Shown here: positions 55,582-63,843 of the stretch, in pieces
Layout of the letters: every line of letters starts with the position of its first letter
How positions within the stretch are numbered: the first letter of the stretch is position 1
The notes under the pieces: generated by a model
Told to the model about the DNA's origin: nothing
Seen by the model: the letters and a program-made list of their open reading frames with translations, nothing else
The model's database searches: none
Translations under genes and position numbers: made by a program
Assembly: GCA_017476575.1 (NCBI GenBank)
Contig: JAFUZO010000047.1
Span: 16,640 to 80,639, forward strand
Origin: Bacteroidales bacterium
GTDB lineage: Bacteria; Bacteroidota; Bacteroidia; Bacteroidales; UBA932
Reading direction: 5' to 3'
DNA length: 64,000 nucleotides

Positions 55582-56178
55582 ATGGAGCGATCGAAAGGCA
55601 GACGCCTTATCCTGCTGGGAATCGTGCTCGTCGTCATCGACCAGGCCATCAAGGTCCTGGTCAAGACGGGCATGCCCCTTGGCGGCCATTTCAATGTGCT
55701 GGGGAACTGGTTCCAGATCCTGTTTATCGAGAACAAGGGGATGGCTTTCGGCATGTCGTTCGGCGGGGTGATCGGGAAATACGCCCTGACTTTCTTCCGG
55801 ATCTGCCTGTTCATCGCCCTCTGGTGGTGGATCGGCAAGTTGTTGAAACGGGAGAAACCGGTACCGACCGGAGTGGTCGTGGGCCTGACCCTCATCGCGG
55901 CCGGCGCTTTCGGCAATATCATCGACTGCCTGTTCTACGGACTCGTCTTCTCGGAATCGACTCCGACCGCCGTGGCCACGCTGGGCCATTATGCGCCCTT
56001 CATGCAGGGCAAGGTCGTGGACATGTTCTACTTCCCGCTCTGGAGATGGCCGGACTGGGTGCCGCTGGTCGGCGGCGACATCTTCTTCGAGCCGGTCTTC
56101 AACTTCGCCGACAGCTGCGTCACCGTCGGCGCCATCTACCTTATCCTCTTCCAGTGGAAGTTCTTCTCGAAGGAGTAG
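55582..56178 (+). CDS. lspA: Lipoprotein signal peptidase LspA
   Basis: LspA removes signal peptides from diacylated prolipoproteins. The 198-aa protein has four membrane segments and the two catalytic aspartates in FGNIIDCLFYGLVF and PVFNFADSCVTVG. It carries an insert of about 40 residues between the catalytic motifs, lengthening it relative to the roughly 165 aa of the E. coli enzyme. ileS-dksA-lspA is a common Bacteroidota arrangement. Its stop codon abuts that of the convergent lipoprotein gene. Confidence 0.95.
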   Translation: MERSKGRRLILLGIVLVVIDQAIKVLVKTGMPLGGHFNVLGNWFQILFIENKGMAFGMSFGGVIGKYALTFFRICLFIALWWWIGKLLKREKPVPTGVVVGLTLIAAGAFGNIIDCLFYGLVFSESTPTAVATLGHYAPFMQGKVVDMFYFPLWRWPDWVPLVGGDIFFEPVFNFADSCVTVGAIYLILFQWKFFSKE

Positions 56179-56918: not shown

Positions 56919-57003
56919 GGAGGTGTGGCCGAGTGGTCGATGGCGGCAGTCTTGAAAACTGTTGAACGGCAACGTTCCGGGGGTTCGAATCCCTCCGCCT
57001 CCG
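56919..57003 (+). tRNA. tRNA-Ser (anticodon UGA)
   Basis: The 85-nt sequence folds as a serine tRNA: acceptor GGAGGTG/CGCCTCC with one G-U pair and discriminator G, D arm, anticodon stem GCAGT/ACTGT around loop CTTGAAA (anticodon UGA), a long variable arm GAACG-GCAA-CGTTC, and a T arm with GGTTCGAATCC. CCA is not encoded. The last six bases are the first part of a 31-bp direct repeat, so the tRNA is the attachment site of the island on its 3' side. Confidence 0.97.
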
Positions 57004-57028
57004 CAAAAAGGAATGGCATCGCAGCGTC
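56998..57028 (+). mobile_element. attL: 31-bp direct repeat at the tRNA-Ser 3' end
   Basis: This 31-bp stretch, starting CCTCCGCAAAAAGG and ending GCAGCGTC, is repeated without a mismatch at 63039-63069. The first mismatches are one base outside on each side. Its overlap with the tRNA 3' end is typical of tyrosine-recombinase integration sites, and it restores the tRNA end after insertion. Confidence 0.85.
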
Positions 57029-58240: not shown

Positions 58241-58271
58241 TTGTGCCTTCGAAAAAAAAACGTTAACTTTG
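58241..58271 (+). promoter_or_regulatory. Promoter of the three-lipoprotein operon
   Basis: TTG (58241-58243) and TAACTTTG (58264-58271) are 20 nt apart, matching the host consensus. The leader is about 36 nt. The three genes downstream are packed, so this one promoter probably serves them all. Confidence 0.75.
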
Positions 58272-58313
58272 CTATCCAAATAAATATAAAGAGATAAATA
58301 TCCAACACGAATC

Positions 58314-59060
58314 ATGAGTAAGAAAGTTTCAGCAATTGCTGCTGCAATTATCTGCGGCATTATGGGGAGCTCCCTTTTTGTTGCATGCAGTAAAAACAAC
58401 GAGGAAGAGATTGAAGATTATCAGCGTGGATTATACAGCGAAGTTGTTCCTGATGATGGTTCCAATAGCTCAAAGACAGGGATTACAGACGATGACCTTG
58501 CGACTCGGGCAAAGACTCTGGAAGTCGAGGTTGCCGCCCTCAAGGCTGTTTGGAAGGTTGAAACCGGAGGTAGGGGCGGTTTTTTGCCGAACGATAAACC
58601 GGTTATCCTTTTCGAGGGCCACATTTTCTGGCAGCAGCTCCGGGCTCGTGGTCTGAATCCGCAGGACTACGTAAAAGGCAATGAAGATATCCTTTACCAG
58701 AAATACGACAAGACAAAGTATGTCGGAGGCGTCGGCGAGCATGACCGTCTGGATAGGGCAATTGAGATCAATGAAGATGCAGCGCTTGCTTCTGCAAGCT
58801 GGGGCATGTTCCAGACAATGGGTTATCTTTACGAAAAATGCGGATGCAAAACTGTGAAGGAGTTCGTTACTAAGATGCAAGAGAGCGAATTAGCCCAGCT
58901 TGACCTTTTCATCGGACTGCTGAATTCAAATTCCAATATGCTCAAGGCGCTTCAGAATCTCGATTGGCAGACCTTCGCAAGGCTTTACAACGGCCCTTCA
59001 TATGCCCAGTACCACTATGATGAGAAATTGGCTAAGGCTTATTTGAACTATAAGAACTAA
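58314..59060 (+). CDS. Lipoprotein N-acetylmuramidase (endolysin-type, DUF3380 family)
   Basis: The family cleaves the MurNAc-GlcNAc bond of peptidoglycan and is best known from phage endolysins. The 248-aa product has a lipobox (LFVAC, Cys25), a 45-residue linker, and a muramidase domain from about residue 75 to the end. Landmarks are ALKAVWKVETGG (likely catalytic Glu), KPVILFEGHIFWQQL, ASASWGMFQTMGY and FARLYNGPSYAQYHYDEKL. Lipidation would hold the enzyme on a membrane, unlike a free endolysin. It is the first gene of the operon, 21 nt before the next. Confidence 0.82.
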   Translation: MSKKVSAIAAAIICGIMGSSLFVACSKNNEEEIEDYQRGLYSEVVPDDGSNSSKTGITDDDLATRAKTLEVEVAALKAVWKVETGGRGGFLPNDKPVILFEGHIFWQQLRARGLNPQDYVKGNEDILYQKYDKTKYVGGVGEHDRLDRAIEINEDAALASASWGMFQTMGYLYEKCGCKTVKEFVTKMQESELAQLDLFIGLLNSNSNMLKALQNLDWQTFARLYNGPSYAQYHYDEKLAKAYLNYKN

Positions 59061-59081
59061 TTATTTCAGTCAGAATCAGGG

Positions 59082-60146
59082 GTGACCAAGGCGCTGACAA
59101 CATACGGATACGCAGTCATGCTTATCATCATGGCGGCAGCATGCCGGAAGGAACAACTTGAGCTTGATCCTTCCGACATTCCTTCCGGAGCCCCGCTGGT
59201 GACAGTCGTTTACAATCCGGAGGCATTGGGTGACCGCAGCTATAACGACCTGATATATACCGGGATTGAACGCGCAGCCCTCTCTCGCGGACTGAGGACT
59301 ATGCAGTTGTCACCATCTACCACATCGGAGGGGCTTGCAATTCTGCAAGAGTACTTTAAGCAGATGAGTTCACCCAGGGACACGGTTCGTCGGCTTTTGA
59401 TAGTAACAGGAGCAGAATACGAGGACTTCCTGCGCCAAAACAGCAACGCTTTGGAAAGCAATCCGCTTGCGGATTTGCTGTACCTTGAGACCAATGAGCC
59501 GCTTTCAGCCAAAGGCTCCACCATCTGTTTAACATATTACGGCGCAATGTTCGAAGCCGGAGCCGTTTCATGTGCATTTTCTGACGAAGTCCTTCTGATT
59601 GCTGCCAATACCGTGATGCCTGCCATTCAGGAAGCCGTAAAAGGCTTTACCGAAGGATTCAACGCGAACTATCTCCCCTCATACGAAGATAAAGCGCTTC
59701 GGATAGAATGGCTTTCGGACGAGGCCGGAGGAGGATTTGCAATTGACGATGACGAAGCGATGAGCCTCCTTTATGGTGACGGACGCTTTGATGTCGCCCC
59801 TCTTGTGTTCCCGGTATGCGGAGGCGCATCGGGGACATTCTATCGCATAAGCGATTTGCTGGGAGGCTTTGATTATATAGGGATAGATTCACCCAGCCTT
59901 TCCCCCCACTGTCCTTTTTCGGTCGTGAAGCATATCGACAAAGCCGTTAATTACTGCATCGGTCAGTGGCTGTCTCCCGACGGGATGCCGAAGCACCAGA
60001 GCCTGTTATTTGCCGATGGCTGGACAGAAGTAGTCCTGCATCCTTATACTGAGATGCAGAGGTTATTCGCCGAGGAATTCCTTTCCGCTGAGCTGCTCCG
60101 GACCATTCACGAGACGGCCGTTTCCAAGGAGGCTGGTCATGAGTAA
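59082..60146 (+). CDS. BMP/PnrA-like ligand-binding lipoprotein
   Basis: The family binds nucleosides or similar ligands for ABC importers. The 354-aa product starts with GTG and has a lipoprotein signal (MLIIMAAAC, Cys21). Its two-lobed fold shows the family opening VTVVYNPEALGDRSYNDLIY, where GDRSYN is characteristic, and VVKHIDKAVNYCIGQWLS in the second lobe. No permease or ATPase gene is nearby, so it is more likely a sensor or scaffold than a transporter part. Its end overlaps the next gene by 8 nt. Confidence 0.75.
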   Translation: MTKALTTYGYAVMLIIMAAACRKEQLELDPSDIPSGAPLVTVVYNPEALGDRSYNDLIYTGIERAALSRGLRTMQLSPSTTSEGLAILQEYFKQMSSPRDTVRRLLIVTGAEYEDFLRQNSNALESNPLADLLYLETNEPLSAKGSTICLTYYGAMFEAGAVSCAFSDEVLLIAANTVMPAIQEAVKGFTEGFNANYLPSYEDKALRIEWLSDEAGGGFAIDDDEAMSLLYGDGRFDVAPLVFPVCGGASGTFYRISDLLGGFDYIGIDSPSLSPHCPFSVVKHIDKAVNYCIGQWLSPDGMPKHQSLLFADGWTEVVLHPYTEMQRLFAEEFLSAELLRTIHETAVSKEAGHE

Positions 60147-62487
60147 AGGCATGAAGCATATCATGCTATGCCTTATGCTGGGCCTCATTCTGACATCGTG
60201 CTCAGGTAAAGAAGAGATTCAGAGTCAGCGACGCTGGATTAAACATACTGTGGCCATCGTTGCACCTGTCGAAGATGCAATCACTAAGGTCCGGCTTGAA
60301 CGCACGGCAACATGGTTTCTTGAAAATTTCCGTCAGGCGCAGCTTCATAACTCCACAGCCATAGACCTGCATCTCGAATGGTATGATGAATCATCGCAAG
60401 ACCTTGCGAAACTCAGCCGGGAACTCTCCGGCAGGGAGGATGTGCTTGCTGTCATCGGCCCTTTCGGAAATGAGGACCTTGCTGCATTCGCACCGGCCTG
60501 CCAGAGAACGGGCAAGCCCCTCATAGCGCCCACGGTCACCAGCGAAGACATCGTCCGCCGTTATGCCGTGACGACCAGCGGAATGAGAATCAACCGGGAT
60601 CCTTTCCTGTGGTCCCTGACAGAAAGTGACGTTTCATTTACCGGACTCATGATGAGCCGTTATGCCTCTTTGAGCAAATATTACGGCGAAATCCTCGACA
60701 GCCCCCGCGCGGCTTTCTTCTCTCCCGAAAATGCCTATGGAATGACATTCAATTACTGGGCACCGTTCTATTCGCTCCAAGTTGACATCGATCTCCAGCA
60801 AAATAGTCAGTACCAGAATACGGATGATCTTCTCTCAAAACTCGATGCCTACCGCAGGATCATAGACAGGCAGGGAAAAGCAAAGTCTGCAATCTTCTGC
60901 GTAGCAGAGACGGCAAGACAGATTTACGAGGTAGCCCGCGCCAACCGGATTGCGACAATGGACGATGAATTCTGGTCCCTGCTTCACGACAGTGATGACC
61001 CTGACGACCCGGCAAATGACGGAGAGTGGCAAATGTTCAAATCGAATTACAGGACCTACTTCGCCACTCCGGGTCTCTGCGAAGAAGAACTGGATGCCAT
61101 AGGACCACGTTCTTGGAAGATCCTGCAAGGGCACGAAGGTTTTTCCCCATATGCCGACCCTTCCACTGGTTTCGAGCTTAGCTACGAAGTACGTTTCGGG
61201 ATCAAGCCGGGATTTGAGGAATGCAAATTTTACGATGCCCTTATGCTGGCAGGTTTCGCCGCTTGCTATGTGGAACACACGGGGAACGGTGCCGACAATA
61301 AGTCTGTCAACCAGGCCATTATCGATATCGCCATGAACTCTGACCGCTCCGAATTGGGTGGGGCGGTCTGGAACGCCACGTCGATGGAAGTGTATCTGAA
61401 CGCCCTCGAGCAGGGACGGCTGCTTCACTTTATCGGGGCTTCGGGTGAAATCAATTTCGATAAGGACACATACACAGCAGCCACTGCCACCACCTACGTT
61501 CACTGGCAGATTCTGGACGGAAAAATCCATCACCGCAATTATTACGGCGGCTCCGGTATCCGTACTGCCGATGCCAATGCCTCTTGGTTGTACCTTTACA
61601 ACGAGCAGCAGGCTGGCGCCGATTTTGATACTCAGGCAGAAGGCGGCGCGGCAATGAATTATCCTGCTCTCACGGATCAGTATGCCGTTCTGGTGCAGGG
61701 CAGCAGCGGATTCAGCAATTATCGGCATCAGGCAGATGTACTTGGCATCTATCAGATGCTCAGGAGCGGAGGCTTCCCCGATGATCATATTATTCTTGTA
61801 CTTGACAAGGATATAGCCTTGGATAAGAATAATCCGGACAGGGGCGTTGTCCGAAATGCCGAGGATGGACCTGACCTCTTTGGAGGAACCGACCGCCTGC
61901 CTGCTGCAACGGTCGATTATGACAGCAAAGACATCTCACCTGTCGACATCGCGAATATCCTTCTTGGCAAGCGAAGCGAACGCCTTCAGACTGTCCTGCC
62001 ACAGGATTCGGGGACTAATGTCCTGCTGTTTTGGAGCGGTCATGGGGACAGCGTATTCAACGGTGGGACGGATGAATTCTGCTGGAGAGATGAGCAGCCC
62101 GGCAATGGTTTCGGTTCCGGGCTTCTCAAGGAAACAGTGAGCACGATGACGTTCCGGAAGCTTCTGATATGTGTGGAACCATGCTACGGAGAAGCCGTCA
62201 TTCGCCCTGTCGAAGGGATTCCTGGAGTGCTTGCCATTTCCGGGGCCAGCGCAAACGAGATGTCTTGGGCCGACCATTGGAACGCCGATGCACGCCTGTG
62301 GATGTGTGACAGATTCTCCTTGAATCTGACTGAGCACCTTACCCAGAATCCTGACAGCAGTTTCCGCGACCTGTTCCTTTACTGTGCCGCGCATACCCTT
62401 GGCTCCCACGCAAAGATTATTGGCGCGGCAACCTATGGAAATCTTTATGTGGAAGGACCCGGAGAATTTATCCGCTCACTTCATTGA
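60139..62487 (+). CDS. Lipoprotein fusion: type-1 periplasmic-binding domain plus C13 (legumain-like) cysteine protease
   Basis: The 782-aa product has a lipobox (LILTSC, Cys21). Residues of about 36-480 resemble branched-chain amino-acid-type binding proteins: HTVAIVAPVEDAITK, VLAVIGPFGNEDLAAFAP, GKPLIAPTVTS, YDALMLAGFAA. Residues of about 525-780 resemble peptidase C13: YAVLVQGSSGFSNYRHQADV, LVLDKDIA, DISPVDIANILLG, then His635 in FWSGHGD and Cys682 in VEPCYGEAV, spaced as in legumain and GPI8. Substrate and ligand are unknown. Composition is less GC-rich than host genes. A terminator lies at its very end. Confidence 0.82.
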   Translation: MSKGMKHIMLCLMLGLILTSCSGKEEIQSQRRWIKHTVAIVAPVEDAITKVRLERTATWFLENFRQAQLHNSTAIDLHLEWYDESSQDLAKLSRELSGREDVLAVIGPFGNEDLAAFAPACQRTGKPLIAPTVTSEDIVRRYAVTTSGMRINRDPFLWSLTESDVSFTGLMMSRYASLSKYYGEILDSPRAAFFSPENAYGMTFNYWAPFYSLQVDIDLQQNSQYQNTDDLLSKLDAYRRIIDRQGKAKSAIFCVAETARQIYEVARANRIATMDDEFWSLLHDSDDPDDPANDGEWQMFKSNYRTYFATPGLCEEELDAIGPRSWKILQGHEGFSPYADPSTGFELSYEVRFGIKPGFEECKFYDALMLAGFAACYVEHTGNGADNKSVNQAIIDIAMNSDRSELGGAVWNATSMEVYLNALEQGRLLHFIGASGEINFDKDTYTAATATTYVHWQILDGKIHHRNYYGGSGIRTADANASWLYLYNEQQAGADFDTQAEGGAAMNYPALTDQYAVLVQGSSGFSNYRHQADVLGIYQMLRSGGFPDDHIILVLDKDIALDKNNPDRGVVRNAEDGPDLFGGTDRLPAATVDYDSKDISPVDIANILLGKRSERLQTVLPQDSGTNVLLFWSGHGDSVFNGGTDEFCWRDEQPGNGFGSGLLKETVSTMTFRKLLICVEPCYGEAVIRPVEGIPGVLAISGASANEMSWADHWNADARLWMCDRFSLNLTEHLTQNPDSSFRDLFLYCAAHTLGSHAKIIGAATYGNLYVEGPGEFIRSLH

Positions 62488-62683
62488 GCGTTTTTTTTGT
62501 TTTCCAGCGGAGGTATTGGATGCGGAAGGAGGAGTATTCGGAGTACATGCGCTCCCCGGTGATGCGCTCCACTTGGGATTCCAGCATTTCGTAGGCATCC
62601 TCGTAGGTCTGGTAGAGCATCCGGATCTCCAGAAATGTGTACCGGAATCCCTGCGGGGACAGCAGTTTCCGGGCAAAGTTCAA
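62468..62683 (-). pseudogene. Unidentified gene fragment in host-like composition
   Basis: The minus-strand frame encodes NFARKLLSPQGFRYTFLEIR followed by a helical stretch including YEDAYEMLESQVERITGERM. It ends inside the operon terminator and has only a TTG or no proper start. The GC content matches the host chromosome more than the island. It looks like a real protein fragment but no family is recognised. Confidence 0.35.
62473..62498 (+). terminator. Intrinsic terminator of the lipoprotein operon
   Basis: CGCTCA-CTTCAT-TGAGCG followed by eight T residues. Its stem overlaps the last codons and stop of the protease gene. The sequence and its downstream GTTTTCCAGCGG resemble the hairpin at 58166. 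Confidence 0.85.
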
Positions 62684-63038: not shown

Positions 63039-63069
63039 CCTCCGCAAAAAGGAATGGCATCGCAGCGTC
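63039..63069 (+). mobile_element. attR: second copy of the 31-bp repeat
   Basis: Identical over 31 bp to 56998-57028. It marks the right edge of the roughly 6-kb island. Sequence after it returns to high GC and host-like codon use. Confidence 0.85.
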
Positions 63070-63109
63070 CGGGTGAAGGTGACCATCCGGGCCTATGGCA
63101 AGCAGGTGT

Positions 63110-63843
63110 ATTACCTTCGGGATCTGCCGCTTCACCTATCTGGACTGGCTCCATACGCAGGAGTGGACATCCCGCCACAAGGATGCCCGCGTGGATTCTT
63201 GGCTCATGGATGTGCCGGGACTGTATGCGCGTCGCGCACCTGGTAACACCTGCCTGTCTGCCCTGCATTCCAATGAAGAGGGCCGGGAAGCAAGGAACAA
63301 CAGTTGCGGCTGCGGTGGCGTGATGCGCACGGCTCCGCTGGCGCTCCTGAACCAGCTGCATGGCTATGCCGACGGGGACAAGCTCTACTGCGACATGTGC
63401 GCTGCCGAAGCGGCCCGGATCACCCACAAGCATCCTCTGGGCTTCATCCCGTCGGCCATCCTGAACGATATGCTCATGCAGATTCTGGAAGGCATCGAGG
63501 GCAAAGAGCAGCGTCCGGAATACTTCGTGGAGAGAGCACTGCAGCGGCTCCCGGAGATCGTTTCCGAAGCGGACGAGGGGAAGAAGTATGGAGAACTCTG
63601 GCCGGAGGAAATCCGTAAGCAGAAACGCCTCATCAGCAAGGCGCTGGATCTGGCATTCACCGATATCGAAGACCACTACGCCATTGAAAATCCATCGGAG
63701 GTGGCTGGACTGGCCATGAGGCGCTGGCTATCGCCATCTACAGCGCTACCAAGCACCGGGATTCCTTCGAGGATGCCATTGTGAGCTGCGTCAACCACTC
63801 CGGAGACAGCGATTCCACCGGAGCCATCTGCGGCATTTTTTAG
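63110..63843 (+). pseudogene. ADP-ribosylglycohydrolase pseudogene (truncated and frameshifted)
   Basis: The family removes ADP-ribose from proteins. Recognisable parts in one frame are RFTYLDWLHTQE, ARRAPGNTCLSAL, CGCGGVMRTAPLAL and THKHPLGF. Near 63705-63720 the reading must shift by one base to continue with GHEALAIAIYSATKHRDSF and VNHSGDSDSTGAICG, the metal-site region. The N-terminal third, including the first metal motif, is missing, and the end after GAICG is cut off by a stop at 63841-63843. It is non-functional by three separate lesions. Confidence 0.8.

What the first reader, a model, noticed from the sequence alone, without database searches (positions are those of the whole stretch)
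58241..62498. Three-lipoprotein cassette: muramidase, BMP-like receptor and binding-domain/legumain-protease fusion
Seen: one promoter, three packed genes (21-nt gap, then an 8-nt overlap), one terminator, and a lipobox in every product. The domains are an endolysin-type N-acetylmuramidase, a PnrA/BMP-like ligand-binding protein, and a type-1 periplasmic-binding domain joined to a C13 peptidase with His635 and Cys682. Known: C13 enzymes (legumain, GPI8) are Asn/Asp-directed proteases or transamidases; the binding folds normally serve importers or sensors. Inference: with no transporter nearby, the receptors may sense a ligand in the periplasm or at the surface. They could then gate proteolysis and wall cleavage, as a cell-killing, antagonism or envelope-stress module. 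Mobile-island context supports a selfish or defensive role but does not prove one.
Basis: partly seen in the sequence, partly recalled or inferred. Interest (0 to 1): 0.88.

Follow-up and report, generated by a model that had tools for sequence, protein, structure and literature searches.

The report
Receptor-protease trigger with swappable weapons
A rumen bacterium carries a small three-gene cassette in which a receptor-like domain is joined to a legumain-type protease domain, next to a second receptor-like protein and a cell-wall-cutting-type enzyme; in relatives the same receptor-protease pair sits next to pore-former-type or lipase-type proteins instead, so the pair is likely a trigger that would cut and release interchangeable weapons at the cell surface.

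Summary
In detail: three packed lipoprotein genes (58314-62487) encode a PF11860 muramidase, a BMP-like receptor, and a LivJ-type receptor fused to a legumain-type C13 protease with H635/C682. Comparison changes the picture. BMP + fusion is the conserved core: BMP lies directly upstream in 43 of 46 testable non-redundant fusions, and the catalytic Cys is kept in 43 of 44 rows reaching it. The muramidase is one clade's partner (6 of 48). Elsewhere the slot holds MACPF perforin lipoproteins, secretory lipases or orphan lipoproteins; two fusions 87% identical have unrelated downstream genes. In 5 genomes all 12 MACPF matches lie within about 15 kb of a core. The cassette moves as a unit: 4.2 kb at 96% identity in another genome with unrelated flanks; here an att-like tRNA-Ser repeat brackets it. 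Best reading (inferred): a ligand-responsive surface protease that processes co-encoded attack proteins against other cells. Against it: five of eight muramidases have Asp for the catalytic Glu; 15 of 48 cores have no recognised partner; acidic surface-export marks are rare in c4 and lipase partners; ligand, cleavage and killing are untested. No described module was found (limited open-access searches).

The parts
56919..57004 (+). tRNA-Ser (UGA), likely integration site
   Evidence: inference from the repeat
56998..57028 (+). 31-nt repeat, copy 1 (att-like), overlapping the tRNA-Ser 3' end
   Evidence: family D1; sequence
58241..58271 (+). promoter-like TTG-N20-TAACTTTG
   Evidence: sequence; consensus recalled; not found by the sigma-70 scan
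58269..62498 (+). unit shared at 95.9% nucleotide identity with L024 6128-10363, flanks unrelated
58314..59060 (+). muramidase lipoprotein, PF11860; Glu83 at 58560-58562 corresponds to catalytic Glu101 of the AP3 endolysin
   Evidence: PMC5674055 passages
58464..58466 (+). Asn51 codon in the PDDGSN linker: predicted cleavage site (inference)
   Evidence: Asn kept in 7 of 7 full-length rows of A7, about four independent lineages
59082..60146 (+). BMP/PnrA-like receptor lipoprotein
   Evidence: adjacent to the fusion in 43 of 46
60139..62487 (+). fusion lipoprotein: type 1 periplasmic-binding domain (about residues 35-481) + C13 protease (about 511-782)
62041..62043 (+). His635 codon, catalytic His
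   Evidence: sequence; alignment; kept in 45 of 46 rows
62182..62184 (+). Cys682 codon, catalytic Cys
   Evidence: sequence; alignment; kept in 43 of 44 rows that reach it
62473..62498 (+). terminator-like hairpin and T run
63039..63069 (+). 31-nt repeat, copy 2 (att-like)
   Evidence: family D1; sequence

Best explanation
The cassette likely encodes a ligand-responsive, lipid-anchored legumain-type protease unit (BMP-like receptor plus receptor-C13 fusion) that would cut and so release or activate a co-encoded, interchangeable attack lipoprotein: here a muramidase, in relatives perforin-like MACPF proteins or lipases. Shown: the gene pair, its domains and active-site residues, its conservation, its mobility and the exchange of the third partner. 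Inferred: the receptors bind a small ligand (amino-acid- or nucleoside-like by family analogy, recalled); binding switches on Asn-directed proteolysis; the protease cuts the linker that tethers the effector (in the muramidase the conserved Asn51 in PDDGSN); the freed effector acts outward on other cells, so the module serves antagonism.
For: BMP directly upstream in 43 of 46 testable non-redundant fusions. H635 in 45 of 46 rows, C682 in 43 of 44; the one row without the dyad (L111) also lacks BMP. Partner exchange: muramidase 6, MACPF 5, lipase 5, c3/c4/c5 families without MACPF or lipase 17, of 48 groups; fusions of L036 and L037 87% identical, L035 and L041 88%, with no significant similarity between the genes downstream; partner class changes at least 8 times on a quick tree. 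Linkage: of 16 MACPF matches in 30 core-bearing genomes, 12 (all those of five genomes) lie within about 15 kb of a core and the other four lie beside c4 genes on small contigs; all five clade-A PF11860 genes lie at the core. Muramidase linker Asn in 7 of 7 full-length rows. Acidic residues behind the lipobox Cys, a surface-export mark in Bacteroidetes (rule recalled), in 7 of 8 muramidases, 8 of 9 c5, 11 of 18 c3 and 6 of 10 MACPF, against 26 of 146 other lipobox ORFs. Precedent: surface C11 proteases activate Bacteroidales toxins (PMC11169675 passages; PMC8406203 and PMC9308784 abstracts).
Against: No cleavage, ligand or killing was tested. Five of eight aligned muramidases have Asp where the AP3 enzyme needs Glu. 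15 of 48 cores have no recognised partner, some on short contigs. The acidic mark is rare in c4 (3 of 16) and lipases (2 of 6), and present in only 20 of 47 fusions and 16 of 36 BMP proteins, so location is not settled. Secretory lipases are common elsewhere in the same genomes, and MACPF genes also occur in genomes without a detected fusion (6 of 9). No immunity gene was identified.
Confidence: 0.48

Rival explanations
1. A self-directed envelope suicide or defence module: the receptors sense damage or infection, the protease frees the effector in the producer's own envelope and the cell dies, a periplasmic analogue of protease-gasdermin systems (analogy recalled).
For: Sensor-protease-effector logic with effector exchange and patchy, mobile distribution; a periplasmic muramidase would meet the producer's own wall.
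Against: No PADLOC match for 6 proteins scanned; the acidic mark in 7 of 8 muramidases points to the outer face (rule recalled); no phage or plasmid carriage found.
Confidence: 0.2
2. A nutrient-gathering or predation module: the receptor proteins hold nutrients or fragments, and the protease, lipase or muramidase digest dead or living prey cells in the rumen.
For: Receptor folds of the importer type; an M6-type peptidase gene (L081) and lipases by some cores.
Against: MACPF proteins are pore-formers rather than digestive enzymes, and they are linked to cores; no transporter was noticed beside the cores, though transporters were not searched for systematically.
Confidence: 0.15
3. The C13 domain is a transamidase or ligase, as in GPI8 and plant asparaginyl ligases, and attaches the partner lipoproteins to a surface acceptor instead of freeing them.
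Against: Legumain scores slightly better; no acceptor signal common to the partners was found, but none was searched for.
Confidence: 0.1
4. The third genes are chance or loosely linked neighbours of a receptor-protease pair that does something else.
For: 15 of 48 cores have no recognised partner; muramidase on the opposite strand in 4 of 6 groups.
Against: Apart from the muramidase, all labelled partners are on the core's strand; 12 of 16 MACPF matches at cores, chance product about 1e-9 for five genomes under random placement (rough).
Confidence: 0.07

Closest known systems
Surface C11 proteases (fragipain, DpnB) and the toxins they activate (Fab1, BcpT, two-component CDCLs) in Bacteroidales
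   Same: Lipid-anchored clan CD cysteine protease (clan recalled) outside the cell; proteolysis activates attack proteins (PMC11169675 passages; PMC8406203 and PMC9308784 abstracts).
   Different: Here the protease is C13, fused to a receptor domain, paired with a second receptor and encoded beside its presumed substrates; activation is not shown.
BSAP MACPF toxins of Bacteroidales
   Same: MACPF lipoproteins, some with an N-terminal BACON domain (PMC12853789 passages), as in several partners here.
   Different: The window's genome has no MACPF match; the passages read describe no C13 protease or receptor pair beside BSAP genes.
B. thetaiotaomicron BT_3433-BT_3442 lipoprotein cluster around a MACPF protein
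   Same: Duplicated lipoproteins rich in putative pore-formers (PMC2954219 passages).
   Different: The passages read name no C13 protease or BMP-like receptor.
Legumain / GPI8 (peptidase family C13)
   Same: Fold, His-Cys dyad, pocket Arg/His/Glu.
   Different: Fused behind a type 1 periplasmic-binding domain and lipid-anchored in a bacterium.
Bacterial gasdermin and other sensor-protease-effector immunity (recalled)
   Same: Logic of sensor, protease and exchangeable membrane attack.
   Different: Cytosolic systems, different folds; no PADLOC match here.

Membership tests
Peptidase family C13 | PF01650 domain over cut-off and legumain fold | tested here: met
Peptidase family C13 | catalytic His and Cys | tested here: met
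   H635, C682 aligned; kept in 45 of 46 and 43 of 44 rows
Peptidase family C13 | Asn-directed cleavage | not testable with these tools
   pocket-type residues Arg529 (46 of 46), His530 (44 of 46) and Glu680 (41 of 44, Asp in 3) kept; pocket roles recalled
Type 1 (LivJ-like) periplasmic-binding proteins | fold | tested here: met
Type 1 (LivJ-like) periplasmic-binding proteins | ligand and ABC importer partner | not tested
   importer genes were not searched for
BMP/PnrA-like receptors | family match | tested here: inconclusive
   no Pfam match in the window protein; profile E 0.0025 to Basic membrane protein A
PF11860 N-acetylmuramidase | domain over cut-off and catalytic Glu | tested here: met
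   213.5 bits; Glu83 aligned with AP3 Glu101; five of eight partners have Asp
C11-protease-activated Bacteroidales toxins | C11 protease | tested here: not met
   the only Pfam family of the fusion is PF01650
BSAP (MACPF) toxins | MACPF domain in the window's genome | tested here: not met
   0 matches in G000; met at other cores
Catalogued anti-phage defence systems (PADLOC-DB 2.0.0) | match to a library model | tested here: not met
   0 matches for 6 proteins at E 0.01

The most novel reading that the evidence does not exclude
A previously undescribed class of bacterial surface weapon: a mobile, ligand-gated legumain-type protease with two receptor modules that unleashes interchangeable perforins, lipases and muramidases, in effect a complement-like cascade outside a bacterium, diversified by swapping the effector while the trigger stays constant.
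Probability: 0.38. Interest if true: 0.9.

Novelty: new variant of a known kind. Interest (0 to 1): 0.74.

Why it matters
Protease-activated antibacterial toxins are known in gut Bacteroidales, but in the passages read the activating protease is a C11 enzyme and no receptor domain is mentioned. A core that joins ligand binding to proteolysis and trades effectors would show how a bacterium decides when to deploy surface weapons, give a handle on hundreds of homologues (765 proteins at E <= 0.001 among 7998 scored candidates) and add an extracellular counterpart to sensor-protease-effector immunity. It would also give a role to C13 proteases in these bacteria: 41 of 45 PF01650 matches in 30 core-bearing genomes are strong (E <= 1.4e-31) and lie in frames of 490-848 aa (not every one was checked for the receptor half).

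Tried and rejected
The trio as the conserved unit: rejected, the muramidase is at 6 of 48 cores. c5 as a MACPF relative: not supported, only the BACON end aligns; its model was too poor to use (pLDDT 38.4), so no fold search was run on it. Carriage by phages or plasmids: no match in 50,697 phage and 72,556 plasmid records; in viral contigs 35 stretches matched a pattern and none was confirmed. PHROGs and NCBIfam gave only the endolysin families for the muramidase, plus a weak sub-cut-off NCBIfam match. tRNA association as a rule: 8 of 35 loci scanned hold a tRNA, of several kinds, so it is not general. Genome-level co-occurrence of MACPF and core is modest: 3 of 10 fusion-positive against 6 of 140 fusion-negative genomes, Fisher p 0.015, taking the 150 relatives to be the same set. 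The chance product of about 1e-9 assumes independent genomes, random placement and 33 kb per core, and is rough.

Rows dropped: homologue counts use fusion ORFs of at least 450 aa (60, collapsed to 48 at 97% identity); shorter pieces (for example L040, L044, L100-L104, L112) were left out. L049 and L051 lack 800 nt upstream. The residue table and tree use 46 of the 48 (L051 and L089 left out). The tree is a quick one with long branches flagged; partner labels were set by hand, with L045, L050 and L079 called MACPF+c4 because MACPF genes lie beside c4 on other contigs or about 12-15 kb away; rows without a labelled partner were left out of the count of 8. The ORF caller is a simple script and over-extends some starts. 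In one search, 88 of 345 genomes matched, but apart from G000 no listed match reaches the protease part, so they were not counted as fusions. Some muramidase rows in A7 are near-copies (L025/L030, window/L024, L027/L039).

Full report

Homologues. A protein search found 765 relatives at E <= 0.001, of which the best 120 were listed. One genome scan gave 18 loci, with titles mostly of Bacteroidales and Prevotella assemblies from ruminants. In sampled genomes: 10 of 150 relatives, own genome included; 33 of 398 in the family, fragments included; 13 of 393 in the order, of which 7, own genome included, show long matches. In the 345 genomes of the phylum sample no listed match other than G000's reaches the protease part. 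The module is patchy and, as sampled, confined to Bacteroidales.

Core. Neighbourhoods of 48 non-redundant fusions were labelled with profiles. BMP lies directly upstream in 43 of the 46 with at least 800 nt upstream. Of the three without it, L029 has a truncated fusion, L089 is a split frame with BMP beside its first piece, and L111 is an outlier that also lacks the dyad. H635 is kept in 45 of 46 aligned rows, C682 in 43 of the 44 rows that reach it, and the lipobox Cys in 45 of 46.

Partner exchange. Within 12 kb of the 48 cores the labelled partners are: muramidase 6, c3+c5 8, c4 5, c3 4, lipase 4, lipase+c3 1, MACPF 3, MACPF+c4 2, none 15, some of the last on short contigs. All ten MACPF proteins scanned (in L036, L047, L105, L108, L109) pass the Pfam cut-off. 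The lipase passes its cut-off in L083, L084, L088 and L098, and falls below it in L092. One of four c5 proteins scanned has a BACON domain over cut-off, and c5 shares only that end with the MACPF proteins. c3 and c4 share an N-terminal domain (E 6e-14). The clearest swap: the fusions of L036 and L037 are 87% identical, while the downstream genes, MACPF and c5, show no significant BLAST similarity; the same holds for L035 and L041 (88%). On a quick tree the partner class changes at least 8 times among labelled rows.

Base rates. In 30 core-bearing genomes there are 16 MACPF matches in 7 genomes. Twelve, in five genomes (G047, G404, G556, G736, G771), lie on the core's contig within about 15 kb, and those genomes have no other MACPF match. 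The remaining four (G005, G055) lie beside c4 genes on small contigs. PF11860 occurs in 8 of the 30: five copies are at the core, three elsewhere. Secretory lipases are common: 18 of 30 genomes have a match, and in four (G180, G421, G453, G502) one lies directly behind the fusion. Among 150 relatives, six of the nine MACPF genomes had no fusion match, so MACPF does not require the core.

Muramidase. Glu83 corresponds to Glu101 of the AP3 endolysin, whose Ala mutant lost 99.4% of activity (PMC5674055 passages; alignment). Of eight aligned partner muramidases, the window, L024 and L029 have Glu and five have Asp. This is the strongest point against a lytic role throughout the clade. The linker between anchor and catalytic domain carries a conserved LYSE...DGSN stretch, with Asn in all seven full-length rows, where a legumain-type enzyme could cut. 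Acidic residues behind the lipobox Cys, which in Bacteroidetes mark surface lipoproteins (rule recalled), occur in 7 of 8 muramidases, 8 of 9 c5, 11 of 18 c3 and 6 of 10 MACPF, but in only 3 of 16 c4, 2 of 6 lipases, 20 of 47 fusions and 16 of 36 BMP proteins, against 26 of 146 other lipobox ORFs. This favours an outward-facing muramidase over self-lysis, and leaves the place of the core open.

Mobility. Window 58269-62498 equals L024 6128-10363 at 95.9% identity, and nothing else between 50001 and 64000 aligns with that locus. A 31-nt exact repeat overlaps the 3' end of tRNA-Ser (56998-57028) and recurs at 63039-63069, bracketing a 6-kb segment. Outside the cassette that segment has no ORF of integrase size, and two of its small ORFs have no Pfam match. 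No phage, plasmid or viral-contig match was found.

Mechanism. Receptor folds joined to a protease in one chain, a second receptor beside it and an exchangeable attack-type protein argue for a trigger unit. Published Bacteroidales systems show that surface C11 proteases activate antibacterial toxins (PMC11169675 passages; PMC8406203 and PMC9308784 abstracts) and that MACPF toxins with BACON domains exist (PMC12853789 passages). I therefore commit to ligand-responsive processing of co-encoded surface effectors for antagonism, at 0.48. Gating, cleavage site, ligand and target are inferred.

Literature. Seven searches on C13, legumain, MACPF, BACON or clan CD with bacterial or effector terms listed no paper that, by title or shown abstract, describes this module. 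For these only listings were read (one search was too broad: 25 of 4,274 listed), the library is open access only, and no preprints are held.

Noticed in passing
window 63095-63784 (+): ADP-ribosylglycohydrolase-type gene (PF03747, E 2.5e-16, from profile position 76 on), apparently lacking its 5' part just behind the second att-like repeat.
   Followed up: partly
window 55582-56178 (+): Signal peptidase II gene (PF01252), which processes lipoproteins, lies about 2 kb upstream of the cassette; probably housekeeping.
   Followed up: partly
L045, L050, L079, L134: Two tandem BMP-fusion pairs followed by arrays of c4 genes; in G404 the array runs on into MACPF genes.
   Followed up: partly
L087 3317-7130 (-): Four c3-type genes in a row beside a BMP-fusion pair, as in an expanding immunity or companion-gene array.
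   Followed up: no
L111 8843-11053 (+): Fusion-like protein with Asn/Ser at the dyad positions and no BMP gene.
   Followed up: no
L083 6137-7135 (-), L084 12587-13597 (+): A further sugar-binding-type receptor lipoprotein directly behind the lipase gene; PF13407 in L083 (E 6.5e-37), L084 by similar start only.
   Followed up: partly
L034 4623-6704 (+): Secreted protein that looks like a peptidyl-arginine or agmatine deiminase just upstream of BMP in a Prevotella locus (read by eye, not scanned).
   Followed up: no
L123 6753-11859 (+): MACPF, c4-type and MACPF genes in a row in G037 without a detected core within the 20 kb fetched.
   Followed up: no
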